Origin: an uncultured Gammaproteobacteria bacterium
GTDB taxonomy: Bacteria; Pseudomonadota; Gammaproteobacteria; UBA9214
Assembly (NCBI GenBank): GCA_905480305.1
Contig: CAJQPV010000099.1
Span: 1-9,191 of the forward strand
Length of the DNA: 9,191 nt
Direction: 5' to 3'
Shown in pieces: positions 802 to 7,858 of this stretch. A program made the translations under genes and the position numbers. How positions within the stretch are numbered: the first letter of the stretch is position 1; each line of letters begins with the position of its first letter. The notes under the pieces are model-generated. The model did no database searches. It was given only the letters and a program-made list of their open reading frames with translations, and had not been told where the DNA came from.

Positions 802-2076
802 TTATTTAACCTTGAAATCCTTAAGTTTTTTAGCCACTGAGATATTCTTCAGCTGCACGTATTTCGGCAGGCCATCCTTGCCATAGGGCGGATAGTCTTC
901 GCCCTGCATCAATGGCGCGAGGTAATCGCGGCAGCTGTTGGTGATGCCAAAACCGTCTTTGGTGATGTAGCGCTTCGGCATCATTTTCTCGACGTTGGCC
1001 ACGCGTGACAGTTTCGCCTCGCCGATCTTCCAGCGATACGGTTTGTTGGAGGTGCGAACAACCGTTGGCATGACAGAGTTTTTACCGGCCACTGCCATTT
1101 CCACTGCCGCCTTGCCCATGGCATAGGCCTGGTCAACATCGGACCTGGACGCAATGTGGCGAGCAGCGCGCTGCAGGTAGTCGGCAACCGCCCAGTGGTA
1201 TTTGTAGCCGAGCTTCTCACGCACCATGTTGGCAATCACCGGGGCGACGCCACCGAGCTGGGCATGGCCAAAAGCATCTTTCAGGCCCTGGTCGGCGAGG
1301 AATTTGCCCTTGCTGTCGGCAACACCCTCGGAAACCACGATAGAGCAGTAACCGTACTGCTTCACCTTGGCCTTCACCTCGCGCAGGAATTTTGCCTGGT
1401 TAAAGGGCACTTCCGGGAACAGGATGATGATTGGCAGGTCACAGTCTTCCGACGCAGCCATGCCGCCAGCAGCTGCAATCCAGCCGGCGTGGCGACCCAT
1501 GACTTCCAGTACGAATACCTTGGTGGAGGTGGCGCACATGGAGGCAACATCAAAGCTGGCTTCACGGGTAGAGACGGCAATGTACTTTGCTACCGAGCCA
1601 AAACCCGGGCAGTTGTCAGTGACCGGCAGGTCGTTGTCCACGGTCTTGGGCACATGAATGGCCTGGATCGGGTAGCCGGTGGCCTTGGACAGCTGTGAGA
1701 CCTTCAGGCAGGTGTCGGCGGAGTCGCCACCGCCGTTGTAAAAGAAGTAACCGATGTTGTGTGCGGCGAAGACCTCGATCAGGCGGTCGTATTCACGCTT
1801 GTTCGCTTCCAGGCTTTTCATCTTGTAGCGACAGGATCCGAAAGCACCGGATGGTGTGTGGCGCAATGCAGCGATGGCGCGAGCGCCTTCCTTGCTGGTA
1901 TCGATCAGGTCTTCGGTGAGTGCACCGATAATGCCGTTACGCCCGGCATATACCTTGCCGATCTTGTCTTTGTGCTGACGCGCTGTTTGGATCACGCCAC
2001 AGGCGGATGCATTAATGACTGCCGTAACACCGCCGGACTGTGCATAAAATGCATTCTTTTTTCCTGCTTTTACCAT
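802..2076 (-). CDS. pfp: Pyrophosphate-dependent 6-phosphofructokinase
   Basis: This enzyme reversibly converts fructose 6-phosphate plus PPi into fructose 1,6-bisphosphate plus phosphate, in the cytoplasm, in glycolysis or gluconeogenesis. The 424-residue protein shows the phosphofructokinase fold signatures: GGVTAVIN at residues 15-22, NGGGDS at 114-119, the catalytic PKTVDND at 143-149 and the sugar-phosphate motif MGRHAG at 193-198. Two features mark PPi rather than ATP use: Asp118, where ATP enzymes have the Gly of GGDGS, and Lys144, where ATP enzymes have Gly (PGTIDND). The residue before Asp118 is Gly instead of the common Asp, Glu or Asn. The start is supported by AAGGAGAG about 7 nt upstream. 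It follows the 114-residue gene by 48 nt and lies upstream of hppA on the same strand, an arrangement like that in Methylococcus, where both genes handle PPi. No frame damage is seen. Confidence 0.95.
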   Translation of the reverse strand: MVKAGKKNAFYAQSGGVTAVINASACGVIQTARQHKDKIGKVYAGRNGIIGALTEDLIDTSKEGARAIAALRHTPSGAFGSCRYKMKSLEANKREYDRLIEVFAAHNIGYFFYNGGGDSADTCLKVSQLSKATGYPIQAIHVPKTVDNDLPVTDNCPGFGSVAKYIAVSTREASFDVASMCATSTKVFVLEVMGRHAGWIAAAGGMAASEDCDLPIIILFPEVPFNQAKFLREVKAKVKQYGYCSIVVSEGVADSKGKFLADQGLKDAFGHAQLGGVAPVIANMVREKLGYKYHWAVADYLQRAARHIASRSDVDQAYAMGKAAVEMAVAGKNSVMPTVVRTSNKPYRWKIGEAKLSRVANVEKMMPKRYITKDGFGITNSCRDYLAPLMQGEDYPPYGKDGLPKYVQLKNISVAKKLKDFKVK

Positions 2077-2124: not shown

Positions 2125-2469
2125 TTATGCGTTCTCGTTTTCAGGGGCCACGAAATCCGCCTGTACCTGCAGTAACGTCACAATGCACTCTGACAGGTCG
2201 TCGTATTCTTCAACGCCGGTACCATACATCTTGTGTACGCGGTAATAGAACTGGCAGCGGTAGTTCGAGTCACCGGTCTTGCAAATAATGAAATGGCAGC
2301 CCTCGTGTTCCCAGTAGGCCGCCGGGCAGGGAGTTAGCTCGGTGGCGTAGGCGTTCAGGCGCAGCTCGGTGTCGGCCAGCATCGGTTCGGTGGCTTTGCC
2401 ATAACGCTCTTCGAGTGTGGTCTTGATAATCCACAGCTCGCTCTCGGTGAAATCTTCGATAGTACTCAT
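2125..2469 (-). CDS. Hypothetical acidic cysteine-containing protein (114 aa) upstream of pfp
   Basis: This is a complete 114-residue soluble protein whose family I do not recognise. The first 25 residues look helical (TESELWIIKTTLEERYGK) and are followed by an acidic helix around 30-44. The middle is aromatic and cysteine-rich: PCPAAYWEHEGCHFIICKTG at about 47-66, then YRCQFYYRVHKMYG at 70-83, a pattern suggesting beta strands. A C-terminal helix-like segment (DDLSECIVTLLQVQADF) follows. Five cysteines (48, 58, 63, 72, 95) are present, without a clear CxxC zinc motif. It is the first gene of the probable minus-strand operon, 48 nt before pfp, and diverges from adk. A -10/-35 pair lies upstream. 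The reading frame has no competitor of similar length and fits the neighbours' arrangement. No function is assigned; a link to PPi-driven glycolysis is inferred from position only. Confidence 0.75.
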   Translation of the reverse strand: MSTIEDFTESELWIIKTTLEERYGKATEPMLADTELRLNAYATELTPCPAAYWEHEGCHFIICKTGDSNYRCQFYYRVHKMYGTGVEEYDDLSECIVTLLQVQADFVAPENENA

Positions 2470-2625: not shown

Positions 2626-2700
2626 ATGTCTGCATTGAAAAAACCTTCCGTGGTTCAGGAGGTTGACGAAATTAACACACTAAAGGAAGCTACACCATAA
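2626..2700 (+). CDS. Short upstream ORF (24 aa) overlapping the adk start
   Basis: An ATG-initiated ORF of 24 codons begins MSALKKPSVVQEVDE and ends ...LKEATP. Its TAA stop at 2698-2700 shares one base with the adk ATG (TAATG), a geometry typical of translational coupling or re-initiation. Its own start has only an A-rich stretch upstream and no clear Shine-Dalgarno sequence, while AAGGAA for adk lies inside its last codons at 2683-2688, 11 nt before the adk ATG. I do not recognise the peptide. It may be a real leader peptide controlling adk translation, or a chance ORF; the overlap favours the first only mildly. Confidence 0.35.
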   Translation: MSALKKPSVVQEVDEINTLKEATP

Positions 2701-3851
2701 TGAGAATTGTATTGCTGGGAGCCCCCGGTTCAGGCAAGGGTACCCAGGCGAAATTGCTGGTCGAGAAATACAAGTTGCCGCAAATCTCGACGGGTGACAT
2801 GTTGCGTGAAGCTGTGGCCGAGGCGACCCTGCTGGGGCGGCAGGCGAAGGTTTCCATGGACGCCGGGCAGTTGGTCAGCGACGAGATTGTGCTGGCGATT
2901 ATTCAGGAGCGTGTAACCCGCCCGGATGCCCGTAAAGGATTTATTTTAGACGGTTTTCCAAGAAATCTGCAGCAGGCAGAGGCACTTGACCAGTTGTTGA
3001 CCAGCCTCGGGAGACCGCTGAACCTGTCGTTGCTGGTAGCCGTGGATGTGGATGCCCTGATTCAGCGTTTGGTGGGGCGTCGTACCTGCCTGTCCTGCGG
3101 ACAGATGTACAACATTTATTATGCGCCACCGCATATCGAGGGGCGTTGTGACGAGTGTGGCGGTCGTTTGCGACACCGCGCTGATGACAACGAGGAAACC
3201 ATCGGTAACCGCTTGCGGGTTTTTGAAACGCACACCCTGCCGGTTGTCGAGTATTACAAGGAGCAGGGTACCTTGCGTACTATCCAGGGTGTTGGCGAAA
3301 TTTCCGACATCTTCAAGGCGGTCACCAAGGTTGTGGAAGATGTGAAGTCCAACCTGAAAAACGAAACCCGTACCGATGCTATTCGCGCGGCCTTTGCCAA
3401 GCACCGCGCCAGCAAGGCCGAGAAGGCAGCCGCCGACAAAAAATCGACCAGGAAGGCGACCAGCAAAAAAGCTGCCAGCAAGACGGGGAAGAAAACCGCC
3501 GCCAAAAAGACAGGGAAGAAAACCGTCGCCAAAAAGACAGTCAAGAAAAAAGTGGTTGCCAAAAAGAAGGCGGCCGTGAAAAAGACAGTTAGAAAGAAAG
3601 TGGTGACGAAGAAAAAGGTGACGGCGAAGAAAAAAGTGGCTGCCAAAAAGAAGCTAGCCACGAAAAAAACAGTCAGGAAGAAGGTGGCAGCGAAGAAAAA
3701 ACCAGCTGCCAAAAAGAAAGTAGCTACGAAAAAGACAGTAGCCACGAAAAAGACAGTCAGGAAGAAGCTGGCAGCGAAGAAAAAGCCAGCTGCCAAAAAG
3801 AAAGTCACTGCGAAAAAGACTGCCAGCAAGACGACACGCAAGAAGCGCTGA
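2700..3851 (+). CDS. adk: Adenylate kinase with a long lysine-rich, histone H1-like C-terminal tail
   Basis: Adenylate kinase interconverts ATP + AMP and 2 ADP in the cytoplasm. The core (about residues 1-217) is complete. It has the P-loop GAPGSGKGT at 7-15, the AMP-site TGDMLR at 31-36, FILDGFPRN at 81-89, and a LID with CLSC at 130-133 and CDEC at 150-153, which should bind zinc as in many Gram-positive enzymes. RHRADDNEETIGNRL follows at 158-172. The usual family length is about 214-220 residues; this protein has 383. From about residue 234 it continues with repeats of KKTVRKKV, AAKKKPAAKKK and TGKKTVAKK. Residues 241-383 hold about 61 lysines, six arginines and only two acidic residues. 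Such Lys/Ala/Thr-rich tails are known from histone H1, AlgP-like and HctB-like DNA-binding proteins. The tail is in frame with no intervening stop. It probably binds nucleic acid or another polyanion, which is inference. AAGGAA lies 11 nt before the ATG. Confidence 0.95.
   Translation: MRIVLLGAPGSGKGTQAKLLVEKYKLPQISTGDMLREAVAEATLLGRQAKVSMDAGQLVSDEIVLAIIQERVTRPDARKGFILDGFPRNLQQAEALDQLLTSLGRPLNLSLLVAVDVDALIQRLVGRRTCLSCGQMYNIYYAPPHIEGRCDECGGRLRHRADDNEETIGNRLRVFETHTLPVVEYYKEQGTLRTIQGVGEISDIFKAVTKVVEDVKSNLKNETRTDAIRAAFAKHRASKAEKAAADKKSTRKATSKKAASKTGKKTAAKKTGKKTVAKKTVKKKVVAKKKAAVKKTVRKKVVTKKKVTAKKKVAAKKKLATKKTVRKKVAAKKKPAAKKKVATKKTVATKKTVRKKLAAKKKPAAKKKVTAKKTASKTTRKKR
3483..3536 (+). repeat. 27-nt tandem duplication in the adk tail
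   Basis: Two adjacent 27-nt units (3483-3509 and 3510-3536) encode TGKKTAAKK and TGKKTVAKK (residues 262-279). They differ at only a few bases, so the units are related by recent duplication and not just by shared amino-acid composition. Confidence 0.8.
3660..3827 (+). repeat. 84-nt tandem duplication in the adk tail
   Basis: Two adjacent 84-nt units (3660-3743 and 3744-3827) encode 28-residue blocks at residues 321-348 and 349-376, each starting TKKTVRKK and containing AAKKKPAAKKKV. The DNA is nearly identical through the first two thirds of each unit, indicating growth of the tail by tandem duplication. Tail length may vary between strains. Confidence 0.8.
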
Positions 3852-3936
3852 TCGAGGGCTGCCGGCCTGTTTTTATTTATGCCTTGAACTGCCGCCAGTG
3901 CAGCTTTTAGCAACCTCACAGTTTGCATGATTTACG

Positions 3937-4455
3937 ATGCTGCAACTCATTAGAGCCTGGTTTGATATTTGCCTGTTCCGCAAGGGACCTCAGGACCTGC
4001 CGGTTTCCGGGTTTCTGTCCGGGCTGTCTCTGGCCTGTTATGTACTGGTTTCATTCCTGGTAGCGTCTTCATCCTCCGGTATCGTTGCCGGCGTGCAACT
4101 GGCGGCTCTGGATGTGGTGATGCTGATCGTATTTGTGTCAGTACTTTTGTATTTGCAAACCAAAACCGAGCGTCTGGGCCAGACTCTGTCGGCAATGGCA
4201 GGTAGTGGCAGCCTGATGGGTTTGTTTGCTGTGCCGCTGGTGCTGCTGGTCGATCCTGGCTTGCCGGCTGATCGGTTGTCGCCGTTGCTGATCGGTAGCT
4301 GGCTGTCATTGCTGGTCTGGAATATATTTGTCATGGCCCATATCATGCGCCATGCCCTGTCGACTTCATTTGCTGTTGGACTGGGTGCTGCCGTGTTGTA
4401 CGCACTGGTGAGCATGCAAATCGTCGCAACGCTTTTTCCACAACAGGTTGTCTGA
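3937..4455 (+). CDS. Small multi-spanning inner-membrane protein of unknown function (172 aa)
   Basis: A short N-terminal segment (MLQLIRAWFDICLFRKGPQDLP) is followed by about five hydrophobic helices, near residues 24-45, 50-73, 88-106, 114-136 and 142-166. Short polar links include QTKTERLGQ (about 74-82) and DPGLPADRLSP (106-116). The protein is therefore an integral inner-membrane protein. No catalytic motif is seen and I do not recognise a named family. The ATG at 3937 is the first in-frame start after a stop at 3928-3930, and it lacks a good Shine-Dalgarno sequence. The stop codon directly abuts the mpl ATG, so the two genes are probably co-translated. A tie to cell-wall recycling is suggested by this coupling only. 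Confidence 0.8.
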   Translation: MLQLIRAWFDICLFRKGPQDLPVSGFLSGLSLACYVLVSFLVASSSSGIVAGVQLAALDVVMLIVFVSVLLYLQTKTERLGQTLSAMAGSGSLMGLFAVPLVLLVDPGLPADRLSPLLIGSWLSLLVWNIFVMAHIMRHALSTSFAVGLGAAVLYALVSMQIVATLFPQQVV

Positions 4456-5824: not shown

Positions 5825-7858
5825 CTACCGGGAAAGCTGCTGCTGTTTTTCCCATGCCAGCAATACATTGCCCTGCCAGGGTATTGGTAAACCGCTAACT
5901 GTCCGCTGTCTGCGTAGCAAGCGCGTTGTCGTACTGTTGCCAAGTGCCCGGGATAACAGGTCGAGCGGGCTCTCAAAGTCCGTCCCGGTGCGCAGATAGC
6001 TAATCAGCGGCAGTTCCTTTTCGATTAACAGGTAGGCGATATAGCCGTTCCATACCGGGGTGTTGCTGTTGATGAGCTGCAGGTCGGAAGGCCACAGCCG
6101 CAGGATAACGAGCCGCTCTTTATCAGTCTGCCGTGGTGCCACCAGTAGCAGGCCCTGGTGCTGACCGTCGTTGACCTGCGGCAGGATTGGCAGCCCGGTA
6201 ATCTCCGGGTCAGGTGCCAGCCAGTTAATGGCATTGGTGGGACGCAGTGCCGCTGCAGATGTCCAGGCTTGTGTCTGCAGCACACTTTTCAGTGCTTCAA
6301 GGCTGCCGGCCCACTGGAAGTTCATCGGCTGGGTGTTGACCCCCTCAATATCGATTCGATATGCCGGTAATCGTTCCCAGCTGCTGGTAGTCCAGGTAGG
6401 CAGTGTCACCCGATGTATTTCCACTGCGGGTGAGTAGTAGGCGAGTTCGCGTTTAAAGTCATGCTGTGTCTGCCAGCTACCGGCCACTATCAGCAACAGC
6501 GTGCTAACCCCGAGCAGTCGCTTCACCGGCAGACGCGGTGCCGGGTGCCGGTCATAGGCAAGGCCAATCAATGCAACCCAGATCAGCCCAAGCAAGGCCC
6601 CGGCGAAAACATCCGAGAACCAGTGGACACCCAGATACAGGCGCGACAGGGCAATGGCGGTAACCAGCAGTCCGGCAAAGGAGTAGGGTAGCCAGCGCCG
6701 GGTAACATGCAGTTCGCGGGCAATGATGAGGGCAAGGAATCCGTATACCGCCAGACTCATGCTGGTGTGTGCGCTCGGGAACGAGTAGCCCCCGTAGCTC
6801 GACAGTGGGCGCGCGACCTGTACCGTACTCTTTAATAACCAGGTGAGCAGGCCAACGCTGGCATACGCGGCCAGCCAGTGCCAGGCGGCCTTGCTGTTGC
6901 CCTTCCAGAGCAGCCATGCGCAGCTGCCGGCCAGTACCAGCGCCAGTAATGCCTGGTCACCGAGCTGGGTGATGAAGACCATTACCTGGTCGGCCCAGGG
7001 AGTGCGCAGGTTCTCCAGTGAATGGAACAGGTAGGCGTCGATGCCATACATCCAGTGGCCGTGCAGTACCTGTCTGGAGGTTAGCAGCAGCAGCCACAGG
7101 GCGACGAAAAACAGCGCGGACAGGGCGGCCAGCCCGCGCGCTTCCGGGTGGTCCGGATCAAGCAGAGAGCCGGCCAGTGGATTGATGCGCGGGTGGTTGC
7201 GGCTGTATTCGAGCAGTTTTTCAAGGGCGCGGGCAATGTGCGGCTGCAGCAGCCGTATCAGGCCGCTGGCAATCCAGATACCGAACCAGGCAATAGCGGC
7301 GACTACCACCAGTAGCACTACCAGCCGGCCGGCGACCTCGGCGGCCAGCCCCAGGGAAGCGCCGAACACCATGCCGGGCAGGATGTAGACCGGTGCCCAC
7401 AGCGCCGAGGCAATGATGTCGATGACCAGAAAGCGCGAGGTCGACATGTTCATCATGCCGGCAATCGCCGGTACGATTGGCCGCAGTGGCCCGATGAAAC
7501 GCGCCATGAAAACGCTCTTGCCACCGTGCCTGACGAAGAAGTCGACACCGCGATTGACCATCACCGGGTAACGGCGAAACGGCCAGATGACACGTAGAGT
7601 TTGATGGTAGTGGCGGCCAAGCAGGAAGCTGATGAAGTCGCCGACTATGGCGCCGGCGATGGTCGATAGCATGATCGGGGCGATCGGCAATGCGCCGGTG
7701 GCCATCAGTGCGCCGGCGCCAAACAACAGTGCGGCACCCGGTATCAGCAGGCCCAGAACCACCAGTGATTCCATCAGCGCAACAAAAAACACGGCGATAC
7801 TGAATGCCATCGGGTGCAGGGTGATCCAGCTCAGCAGATTTTGCAGCAGTTCGTTCAT
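5825..7858 (-). CDS. DedA-PAP2-LssY type multidomain membrane phosphatase
   Basis: This 677-residue membrane protein joins three modules. Residues 1-200 are a DedA (VTT/SNARE-associated) domain with GDFISFLLGR at 73-82 and ARFIGPLRPIVPAIAG at 119-134; this family contains lipid transporters or flippases. Residues about 240-435 are a PAP2 lipid phosphatase with all three motifs: KSTVQVARP (343-351), PSAH (361-364, catalytic region) and SRLYLGVHWFSDV (405-417, with His412 and Asp416). After a last helix at about 447-460, residues 465-677 form a soluble region that looks like the LssY C-terminal domain known from Legionella. The likely substrate is a lipid phosphate or pyrophosphate such as undecaprenyl-PP or phosphatidic acid, which is inference. 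AAGGGA lies 5 nt before the ATG. It follows hemL by 28 nt on the same strand, so the two are probably co-transcribed. Confidence 0.88.
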   Translation of the reverse strand: MNELLQNLLSWITLHPMAFSIAVFFVALMESLVVLGLLIPGAALLFGAGALMATGALPIAPIMLSTIAGAIVGDFISFLLGRHYHQTLRVIWPFRRYPVMVNRGVDFFVRHGGKSVFMARFIGPLRPIVPAIAGMMNMSTSRFLVIDIIASALWAPVYILPGMVFGASLGLAAEVAGRLVVLLVVVAAIAWFGIWIASGLIRLLQPHIARALEKLLEYSRNHPRINPLAGSLLDPDHPEARGLAALSALFFVALWLLLLTSRQVLHGHWMYGIDAYLFHSLENLRTPWADQVMVFITQLGDQALLALVLAGSCAWLLWKGNSKAAWHWLAAYASVGLLTWLLKSTVQVARPLSSYGGYSFPSAHTSMSLAVYGFLALIIARELHVTRRWLPYSFAGLLVTAIALSRLYLGVHWFSDVFAGALLGLIWVALIGLAYDRHPAPRLPVKRLLGVSTLLLIVAGSWQTQHDFKRELAYYSPAVEIHRVTLPTWTTSSWERLPAYRIDIEGVNTQPMNFQWAGSLEALKSVLQTQAWTSAAALRPTNAINWLAPDPEITGLPILPQVNDGQHQGLLLVAPRQTDKERLVILRLWPSDLQLINSNTPVWNGYIAYLLIEKELPLISYLRTGTDFESPLDLLSRALGNSTTTRLLRRQRTVSGLPIPWQGNVLLAWEKQQQLSR

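What the first reader, a model, noticed from the sequence alone, without database searches (positions are those of the whole stretch)
3390..3851. Adenylate kinase fused to a long lysine-rich, histone H1-like tail
The core enzyme ends near residue 217, but the frame continues for about 165 residues. Residues 241-383 are about 43% lysine with almost no acid residues, organised in KKTVRKK / AAKKKPAAKKK repeats like H1, AlgP or HctB tails. Joining a metabolic nucleotide-balancing enzyme to a polycation is unusual. The tail could tether Adk to the nucleoid, to RNA or ribosomes, or to polyphosphate, placing ADP/ATP interconversion at a site of use. The neighbouring operon handles pyrophosphate, so a polyphosphate or PPi connection is worth testing. 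The sequence facts are direct; the role is inference.
Basis: partly seen in the sequence, partly recalled or inferred. Interest (0 to 1): 0.75.

Follow-up and report, generated by a model that had tools for sequence, protein, structure and literature searches.

The report
Adenylate kinase with histone-H1-like nucleic-acid tail
Many gammaproteobacteria, including this one, carry an adenylate kinase (a basic energy-balancing enzyme) that ends in a long lysine-rich tail resembling histone H1, which likely holds the enzyme on DNA or RNA; the tail is conserved across dozens of bacterial family groups, and my literature searches found no description of it.

Summary
The fusion is real. The 383-aa frame (2700-3851) has an intact Cys4-lid adenylate kinase core (1-217) and a 166-aa tail (net charge +69; 43% Lys over 241-383). 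It is not an assembly error: of 370 gammaproteobacterial genomes searched, at least 90, in 41 family groups, carry a tailed Adk. Tail sequence and length diverge, but composition holds: Lys about 34%, almost no acid in the distal half, mixed AAA/AAG codons, an Arg-rich end. In 39 of 89 such genomes it is the only Adk match; the window's family also has an ordinary tailless 218-aa Adk. A PPi-type phosphofructokinase gene usually lies divergently beside it (67 of 87 tailed, 7 of 42 tailless), but independence from descent is not shown. Tails of the same kind in these genomes sit on DksA, HU-like, RNase R-like, helicase and stand-alone H1-like proteins. PPK1 is missing from 34 of 89 tailed genomes, so polyphosphate made by PPK1 is not a universal partner. 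Best reading: a disordered polycation that likely anchors Adk to nucleic acid. Binding and localisation are untested.

The parts
2700..3350 (+). adenylate kinase core, residues 1-217
   Evidence: Pfam ADK, AAA_17 and ADK_lid; P-loop and the Arg/Asp residues recalled as catalytic are invariant in a 36-row alignment; AlphaFold pLDDT above 90 in each block of ten up to residue 220
3087..3158 (+). Cys4 lid (C130, C133, C150, C153), zinc-lid type
   Evidence: invariant in the 10 cores aligned (9 tailed, 1 cut by a contig end); at least 4 Cys in the lid stretch of 89 of 90 tailed loci; zinc binding itself is recalled from the family
3369..3476 (+). predicted linker helix, residues 224-259
   Evidence: AlphaFold, block pLDDT 77, 92, 92, then 70
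3351..3848 (+). Lys-rich histone-H1-like tail, residues 218-383, predicted disordered from about 263
   Evidence: composition, pLDDT below 50, a tail in 90 of 135 loci examined
3837..3848 (+). C-terminal RKKR; Arg-rich ends recur among the tails
   Evidence: Arg is 30% of the last five residues against 3% in the rest of 76 complete strict tails
3856..3868 (+). weak terminator-like stem followed by T run
   Evidence: 4 found in the region against a mean of 2.5 in shuffles, so not significant
802..2076 (-). phosphofructokinase, PPi-dependent type (pfp), divergent neighbour
   Evidence: Pfam PFK; the PPi-dependent type is recalled, not from a call; divergent within 1.2 kb in 67 of 87 scored tailed loci
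2125..2469 (-). 114-aa acidic protein of unknown function between pfp and adk
   Evidence: no Pfam hit at E 0.001; 21 acidic to 8 basic residues; found in 30 of 90 tailed loci and 1 of 42 tailless
3937..4455 (+). 172-aa probable membrane protein (my reading of the sequence), downstream neighbour
   Evidence: no Pfam hit; next downstream in the window's family where the contig reaches
4456..5817 (+). Mur ligase, probably Mpl (name recalled), downstream neighbour
   Evidence: three Pfam Mur_ligase domains; downstream in the window's family where the contig reaches

Best explanation
This is a Cys4-lid adenylate kinase with a conserved polycationic tail, predicted to be disordered, that likely works as a nonspecific anchor holding the enzyme on nucleic acid (nucleoid DNA, RNA or ribosomes). 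Shown: an intact core, the composition and conservation of the tail, and tails of the same kind on proteins that, by my reading, handle DNA or RNA in related genomes. Inferred: the tail binds phosphate backbones electrostatically, as reported for the tails of PhaF, AlgP, Hc1/Hc2 and actinobacterial TopA. Inferred and weaker: the anchor places AMP + ATP <-> 2 ADP where AMP arises on nucleic acid (RNA decay, ligation, tRNA charging), while the neighbouring PPi-type phosphofructokinase would use the matching pyrophosphate. The Arg-rich end and changing repeats suggest that charge density, not a specific sequence, is what selection keeps.
For: A tail in 90 of 135 loci examined, in 41 family groups; 85 in 39 under a stricter rule. 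Across 90 tails Lys codons are mixed (1990 AAA, 3649 AAG), while Glu codons, one transition away, number 469 (907 Lys and 1100 Glu in the cores), so Lys is kept by selection on the protein and not only by copying of DNA repeats. The distal half of 76 complete strict tails is 43% Lys and 0.6% acidic; net charge of the tails has median +65 and minimum +26. AlphaFold gives a well-folded core and a low-confidence tail. In related genomes such tails or extensions sit on HU-like, DksA, RNase R-like and DEAD-helicase-like proteins, stand-alone H1-like proteins and a phasin-like protein (names are my reading). A K-rich DksA extension is present in 20 of 30 tailed-Adk genomes against 7 of 30 others. 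AlgP and PhaF tails are reported to bind DNA (section 14 of PMC9239181; passages of PMC3574117, PMC13052382), Hc1/Hc2 DNA and RNA (passages of PMC2848022), and TopA lysine repeats to stabilise the enzyme on DNA (passages of PMC7398561).
Against: No binding or localisation data exist here. The same chemistry would bind polyphosphate, and AlgP does associate with polyP granules (abstract of PMC9239181). The DksA comparison used 60 genomes picked by me and is not corrected for descent; 10 of 30 tailed genomes lack the extension and 7 of 30 others have it. 42 of 135 related loci have no tail, so the fold does not need it. Five of the 90 tails are short, Arg-rich or poorer in Lys, and some tails end in other sequence (L205, L207, L238). 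The pattern search missed the window's own Adk tail, so the list of tailed proteins is incomplete.
Confidence: 0.55

Rival explanations
1. The tail tethers Adk to polyphosphate, perhaps for polyP-linked AMP phosphorylation.
For: AlgP, with a similar tail, associates with polyP granules (PMC9239181, abstract and section 14). PPK1 is present in 55 of 89 tailed genomes and in the window's genome.
Against: 34 of 89 tailed genomes are not among the 228 with a PPK1 match, among them the one-contig genomes G094, G096 and G140; tailless genomes have it more often, 35 of 42. PPK2 was not tested.
Confidence: 0.15
2. The tail couples Adk to PPi metabolism by docking on the neighbouring phosphofructokinase or on the acidic 114-aa protein encoded between the two genes.
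For: Divergent pfp within 1.2 kb in 67 of 87 scored tailed loci against 7 of 42 tailless; the 114-aa protein is acidic and occurs in 30 of 90 tailed loci against 1 of 42.
Against: On the tree only 4 well-supported independent pairs exist; pfp goes with the tail in a mean of 0.6 of them, against it in 0.0, and does not differ in 3.4. Among named loci 11 of 27 scored tailless ones have pfp too, against 8 of 12 tailed. The phosphofructokinase itself is basic, 59 Lys+Arg to 39 Asp+Glu. 20 of 87 tailed loci lack adjacent pfp.
Confidence: 0.1
3. The tail is a nearly neutral product of repeat expansion, tolerated because it does not hinder the enzyme.
For: Lengths vary among 12 proteins with an identical 217-aa core, 346-378 aa; tandem repeats are evident; 42 of 135 related loci have no tail.
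Against: Present in 41 family groups; its distribution over the tree is clustered, 11 changes against 56.5 in shuffles; Lys kept through synonymous change, Glu rare; an Arg-rich end recurs.
Confidence: 0.12
4. The tail works mainly on the protein itself: solubility, oligomerisation or condensate formation, without a fixed polyanion partner.
For: Coacervation with polyP is discussed for the AlgP tail (passage of PMC9239181).
Against: No direct evidence; such condensation would still need a polyanion.
Confidence: 0.08

Closest known systems
Cys4 (zinc) lid bacterial adenylate kinase
   Same: Core fold, P-loop, lid cysteines; closest solved chains by sequence are 217-226-aa adenylate kinases such as 5g3y, 5g3z and 4qbh.
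   Different: Those chains end with the core; here 166 residues follow.
PhaF / AlgP C-terminal domains (Pseudomonas)
   Same: Lys-, Ala-rich, disordered H1-like C-terminus on another N-terminal part; DNA binding reported (PMC9239181 section 14, PMC3574117 passages).
   Different: The N-terminal part here is a metabolic enzyme, not a granule-associated protein; the window's tail is poor in Pro (1%), while AlgP is described as KPAA repeats. The tails were not aligned here.
Hc2 (HctB) and BpH1
   Same: Lys-rich repeats that vary in number without loss of frame (passages of PMC2848022); 24 of the 120 listed close relatives carry a precomputed PF07382 label.
   Different: Hc2 is a stand-alone DNA/RNA-binding protein; the window's own tail does not reach PF07382 at E 0.001.
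Actinobacterial topoisomerase I with lysine repeats
   Same: An enzyme with an H1-like lysine-repeat C-terminus that stabilises it on DNA (passages of PMC7398561).
   Different: TopA acts on DNA itself; Adk's substrates are free nucleotides.
Fap7/AK6 adenylate kinases
   Same: An adenylate kinase that works at nucleic-acid machinery (ribosome biogenesis; PMC4019466, listing and start of abstract).
   Different: Eukaryotic, different subfamily, no polycationic tail known to me (recalled).

Membership tests
Bacterial adenylate kinase (Adk) | P-loop GxPGxGKGT and ADK domain | tested here: met
   invariant columns
Bacterial adenylate kinase (Adk) | catalytic Arg/Asp set (R36, D84, R88, R123, R160, D162-D163, R171 in window numbering) | tested here: met
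   all invariant in 36 rows; their catalytic role is recalled
Bacterial adenylate kinase (Adk) | Adk activity | not testable with these tools
   needs an enzyme assay
Zinc-lid Adk | four lid cysteines | tested here: met
   C130, C133, C150, C153; zinc itself not testable
Histone H1-like / Hc2 tails | long, Lys-rich, acid-poor, low-complexity repeats | tested here: met
Histone H1-like / Hc2 tails | match to Pfam HC2 (PF07382) | tested here: not met
   no match at E 0.001 for the window protein; label present on 24 of 120 listed relatives
Histone H1-like / Hc2 tails | nucleic-acid binding | not testable with these tools
   needs a binding assay
PhaF / AlgP | phasin or AlgP N-terminal part | tested here: not met
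   N-terminus is ADK; the only other Pfam matches are ADK_lid and AAA domains
Polyphosphate-associated protein | co-occurrence with polyP kinase PPK1 | tested here: not met
   55 of 89 tailed genomes have it, 35 of 42 tailless; PPK2 not tested, so polyP made otherwise is not excluded

The most novel reading that the evidence does not exclude
A large set of gammaproteobacteria runs a nucleic-acid-bound adenylate kinase: an H1-like tail turns the cell's AMP-recycling enzyme into a resident of the nucleoid or of RNA, as part of a wider habit in these bacteria of putting the same polycationic tag on DksA, HU-like and RNA-decay proteins. Energy charge would then be balanced at the genome and its transcripts rather than uniformly in the cytosol.
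Probability: 0.4. Interest if true: 0.78.

Novelty: new variant of a known kind. Interest (0 to 1): 0.62.

Why it matters
Adenylate kinase is a textbook soluble enzyme. If many bacteria tether it to nucleic acid, nucleotide charge is spatially organised in bacteria, which can be tested by removing only the tail. It would also widen the H1-like tail from chromatin and granule proteins to a core metabolic enzyme, and it gives a set of tailed and tailless orthologues for comparison. In 39 of 89 tailed genomes no other Adk match was found, so there the tailed form presumably also does the housekeeping job.

Tried and rejected
Frameshift or assembly fusion: rejected, the tail is in frame in relatives of 41 family groups, including one-contig genomes. 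Loss of the tail in the window's genus: not seen. Of 12 genus-mates 7 show the tailed gene and 5 do not. None of the five gave a match to the window's Mpl at E 1e-60 (that search had no positive control) and three (G002, G004, G006) none to the phosphofructokinase either; in the other two (G007, G010) it was found near a contig start. So the locus is probably missing or broken in these assemblies, though real loss is not excluded. Antisense ORF 3254-3928: rejected as the mirror image of Lys codons. Weak own-genome match C183:2615-3031 to the tail (E 0.009): reads as a secreted-looking ORF without a Lys tail, chance. A tail search by HMMER over 10 genomes, all with a tailed Adk, rang in 5 and found the Adk tail itself in only 3, so a Lys codon pattern was used. 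That pattern is also incomplete: 4 of 14 genomes gave nothing and it missed the window's own Adk tail. Of six further spots read, one (L316) showed no Lys-rich ORF and one (L312) only a short Lys-rich end; L282 has an acidic as well as Lys-rich end. Independence of tail and pfp: tested, not supported. PolyP: tested by PPK1, disfavoured. Literature: searches; four of them returned more papers than were listed (20 of 47, 20 of 26, 25 of 42, 20 of 43), and I judged by listed titles and abstract starts; none there describes a Lys-rich tail on Adk. The one Adk mention in the PhaF paper is a reference about archaeal Adk unfolding.

Full report
Observation. The frame 2700-3851 encodes 383 aa. Residues 5-190 match Pfam ADK and residues 127-162 ADK_lid. 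Residues 241-383 contain 61 Lys of 143 and 2 acidic residues; the tail as a whole has 73 basic and 4 acidic residues. Tandem repeats of 18-84 bp underlie it. AlphaFold from a 36-row alignment gives a confident core, a helix at 224-259, and pLDDT below 50 for most of 263-380.

It is not an artefact. In the window's genus 7 of 12 other genomes show the gene, all seven with a tail. In the other five no Mpl match was found and in three no phosphofructokinase match either, so the locus seems to be missing from those assemblies (one search had no positive control). A protein search scored 8,000 candidates, of which 7,990 passed E 1e-40; the best 120, the only ones listed, are 270-397 aa long with cores 88-100% identical. 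Twelve proteins with a core identical to the window's have lengths of 346-378 aa, which recalls the repeat-number variation of Hc2 (passages of PMC2848022).

How widespread. I searched 370 gammaproteobacterial genomes, 363 of them at least 90% complete and at most 5% contaminated, and read the full frame and surroundings of the best match in 135 of them (loci); the weaker or fragmentary matches in the others were not read. By the rule 'at least 25 residues after 217 with at least 22% Lys+Arg', 90 are tailed, 42 tailless and 3 undetermined (N runs, or a contig end with a less basic tail). A stricter rule (60 residues, 20% Lys) leaves 85 in 39 family groups. Nine of 90 tails are cut by a contig end. 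Named examples are in the gammaproteobacterial endosymbiont of Lamellibrachia anaximandri (524 aa), a Thiotrichaceae MAG (403), two Natronospirales MAGs (310, 288) and Steroidobacter gossypii S1-65 (350), while Ectothiorhodospira shaposhnikovii, a Methylophaga and a Halothiobacillus have tailless Cys4-lid Adks. On a tree of 186 cores the tail state needs 11 changes, at least 4 forced by well-supported branches, against 56.5 when shuffled. The tree is a quick one with several long branches, and it cannot tell gain from loss.

What is kept. Across 90 tails the Lys codons are 1990 AAA and 3649 AAG; in 74 of 86 tails with more than 20 Lys each codon makes up at least 15%. Glu codons, reachable by one transition, number 469 in tails, against 1100 Glu to 907 Lys in the cores. 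The distal half of 76 complete strict tails is 43% Lys, 5% Arg and 0.6% acidic; net charge has median +65 and minimum +26. The last five residues are 30% Arg against 3% in the rest of the tail. So charge and an Arg-rich end are kept while sequence is not.

Two kinds of Adk. In the window's family, 17 of the 18 ordinary Adk loci listed were read: none has a tail or a Cys4 lid; 16 are 218 aa and one stops at 159. In the class draw the tailed gene is the only Adk match in 39 of 89 tailed genomes (window's incomplete genome left out), and 50 have further matches, which may include fragments. 'Only' means at E 0.001 with the window's core as query. At least 4 Cys in the lid stretch occur in 89 of 90 tailed and 37 of 42 tailless loci.

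Neighbours. adk is divergent from a phosphofructokinase gene (Pfam PFK; the PPi-dependent type is recalled). It lies within 1.2 kb in 67 of 87 scorable tailed loci and 7 of 42 tailless ones. In the 42 named loci the contrast is weaker: 8 of 12 tailed and 11 of 27 scored tailless. On the tree there are 4 supported independent pairs; pfp goes the same way in a mean of 0.6, the other way in 0.0 and does not differ in 3.4, so the link may only reflect shared descent.

Which polyanion. PPK1 is found in 228 of 370 genomes, in 55 of 89 tailed and 35 of 42 tailless. One-contig genomes G094, G096 and G140 have the tail and no PPK1 match. Polyphosphate made by PPK1 is therefore not a general partner. 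By contrast, a pattern search for KKKxxKKK codons in 14 genomes (10 with matches) and a tail search in 10 (5 with matches) led to other proteins with the same sort of tail or extension: stand-alone H1-like ORFs (G001, G056, G094, G130, G381), DksA (G056, G094, G130, G238), HU-like proteins (G130, G381), RNase R-like (the window's own genome), DEAD-helicase-like (G001, G005) and a phasin-like protein (G238). These names are my reading of the translated sequences, recalled, not from a family search. Both searches are incomplete; the pattern even misses the window's own Adk tail. DksA with at least 10 Lys in some 40-residue window upstream of its conserved part occurs in 20 of 30 tailed-Adk genomes and 7 of 30 others (Fisher p 0.0016, genomes picked by me, upstream frame read back to the previous stop, no correction for descent). 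These hosts of the tail mostly handle DNA, RNA or RNA polymerase, which is the main reason for preferring nucleic acid.

Mechanism. The most likely working is a flexible electrostatic anchor. For such tails DNA binding is reported in AlgP and PhaF (section 14 of PMC9239181; passages), DNA and RNA binding in Hc1/Hc2 (passages), and stabilisation of the enzyme on DNA in actinobacterial TopA (passages). The benefit of anchoring Adk is inferred: AMP is released on nucleic acid by RNA decay, ligation and tRNA charging (recalled), and Adk returns it to ADP.

Verdict. A real, conserved and, as far as my searches show (capped listings), undescribed variant: a known enzyme with a known kind of tail, in a new combination of wide distribution. 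Function is inferred.

Noticed in passing
L323-L382, also L270, L272, L274, L315: DksA in many of these gammaproteobacteria has a long Lys-rich H1-like N-terminal extension (20 of 30 tailed-Adk genomes, 7 of 30 others).
   Followed up: partly
L292 (G001), L273/L278 (G056), L277 (G094), L290 (G130), L313 (G381): Stand-alone Lys-rich H1/Hc2-like ORFs; all five end in Arg, as many Adk tails do.
   Followed up: partly
window 2125-2469 (-): Conserved acidic 114-aa protein between pfp and adk, no Pfam match; found in 30 of 90 tailed loci and 1 of 42 tailless.
   Followed up: partly
window 5825-7858 (-): One protein with VTT, PAP2 and LssY C-terminal domains in a row.
   Followed up: no
L022-L029, L031-L039: Ordinary second Adk in the window's family: 218 aa in 16 of 17 read, no Cys4 lid, no tail.
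   Followed up: yes
L285 (G000 contig C326): RNase R-like protein (my reading) of the window's own genome with a Lys-rich C-terminal tail.
   Followed up: no
L237, L242, L243: Short tails (31-42 aa) in which Arg outnumbers Lys, on related Adks of one family group, beside a more distant pfp (53-56% identical).
   Followed up: no
window 3254-3928 (-): Long antisense ORF rich in Phe and Ala, a mirror of the Lys codons; not a gene.
   Followed up: yes
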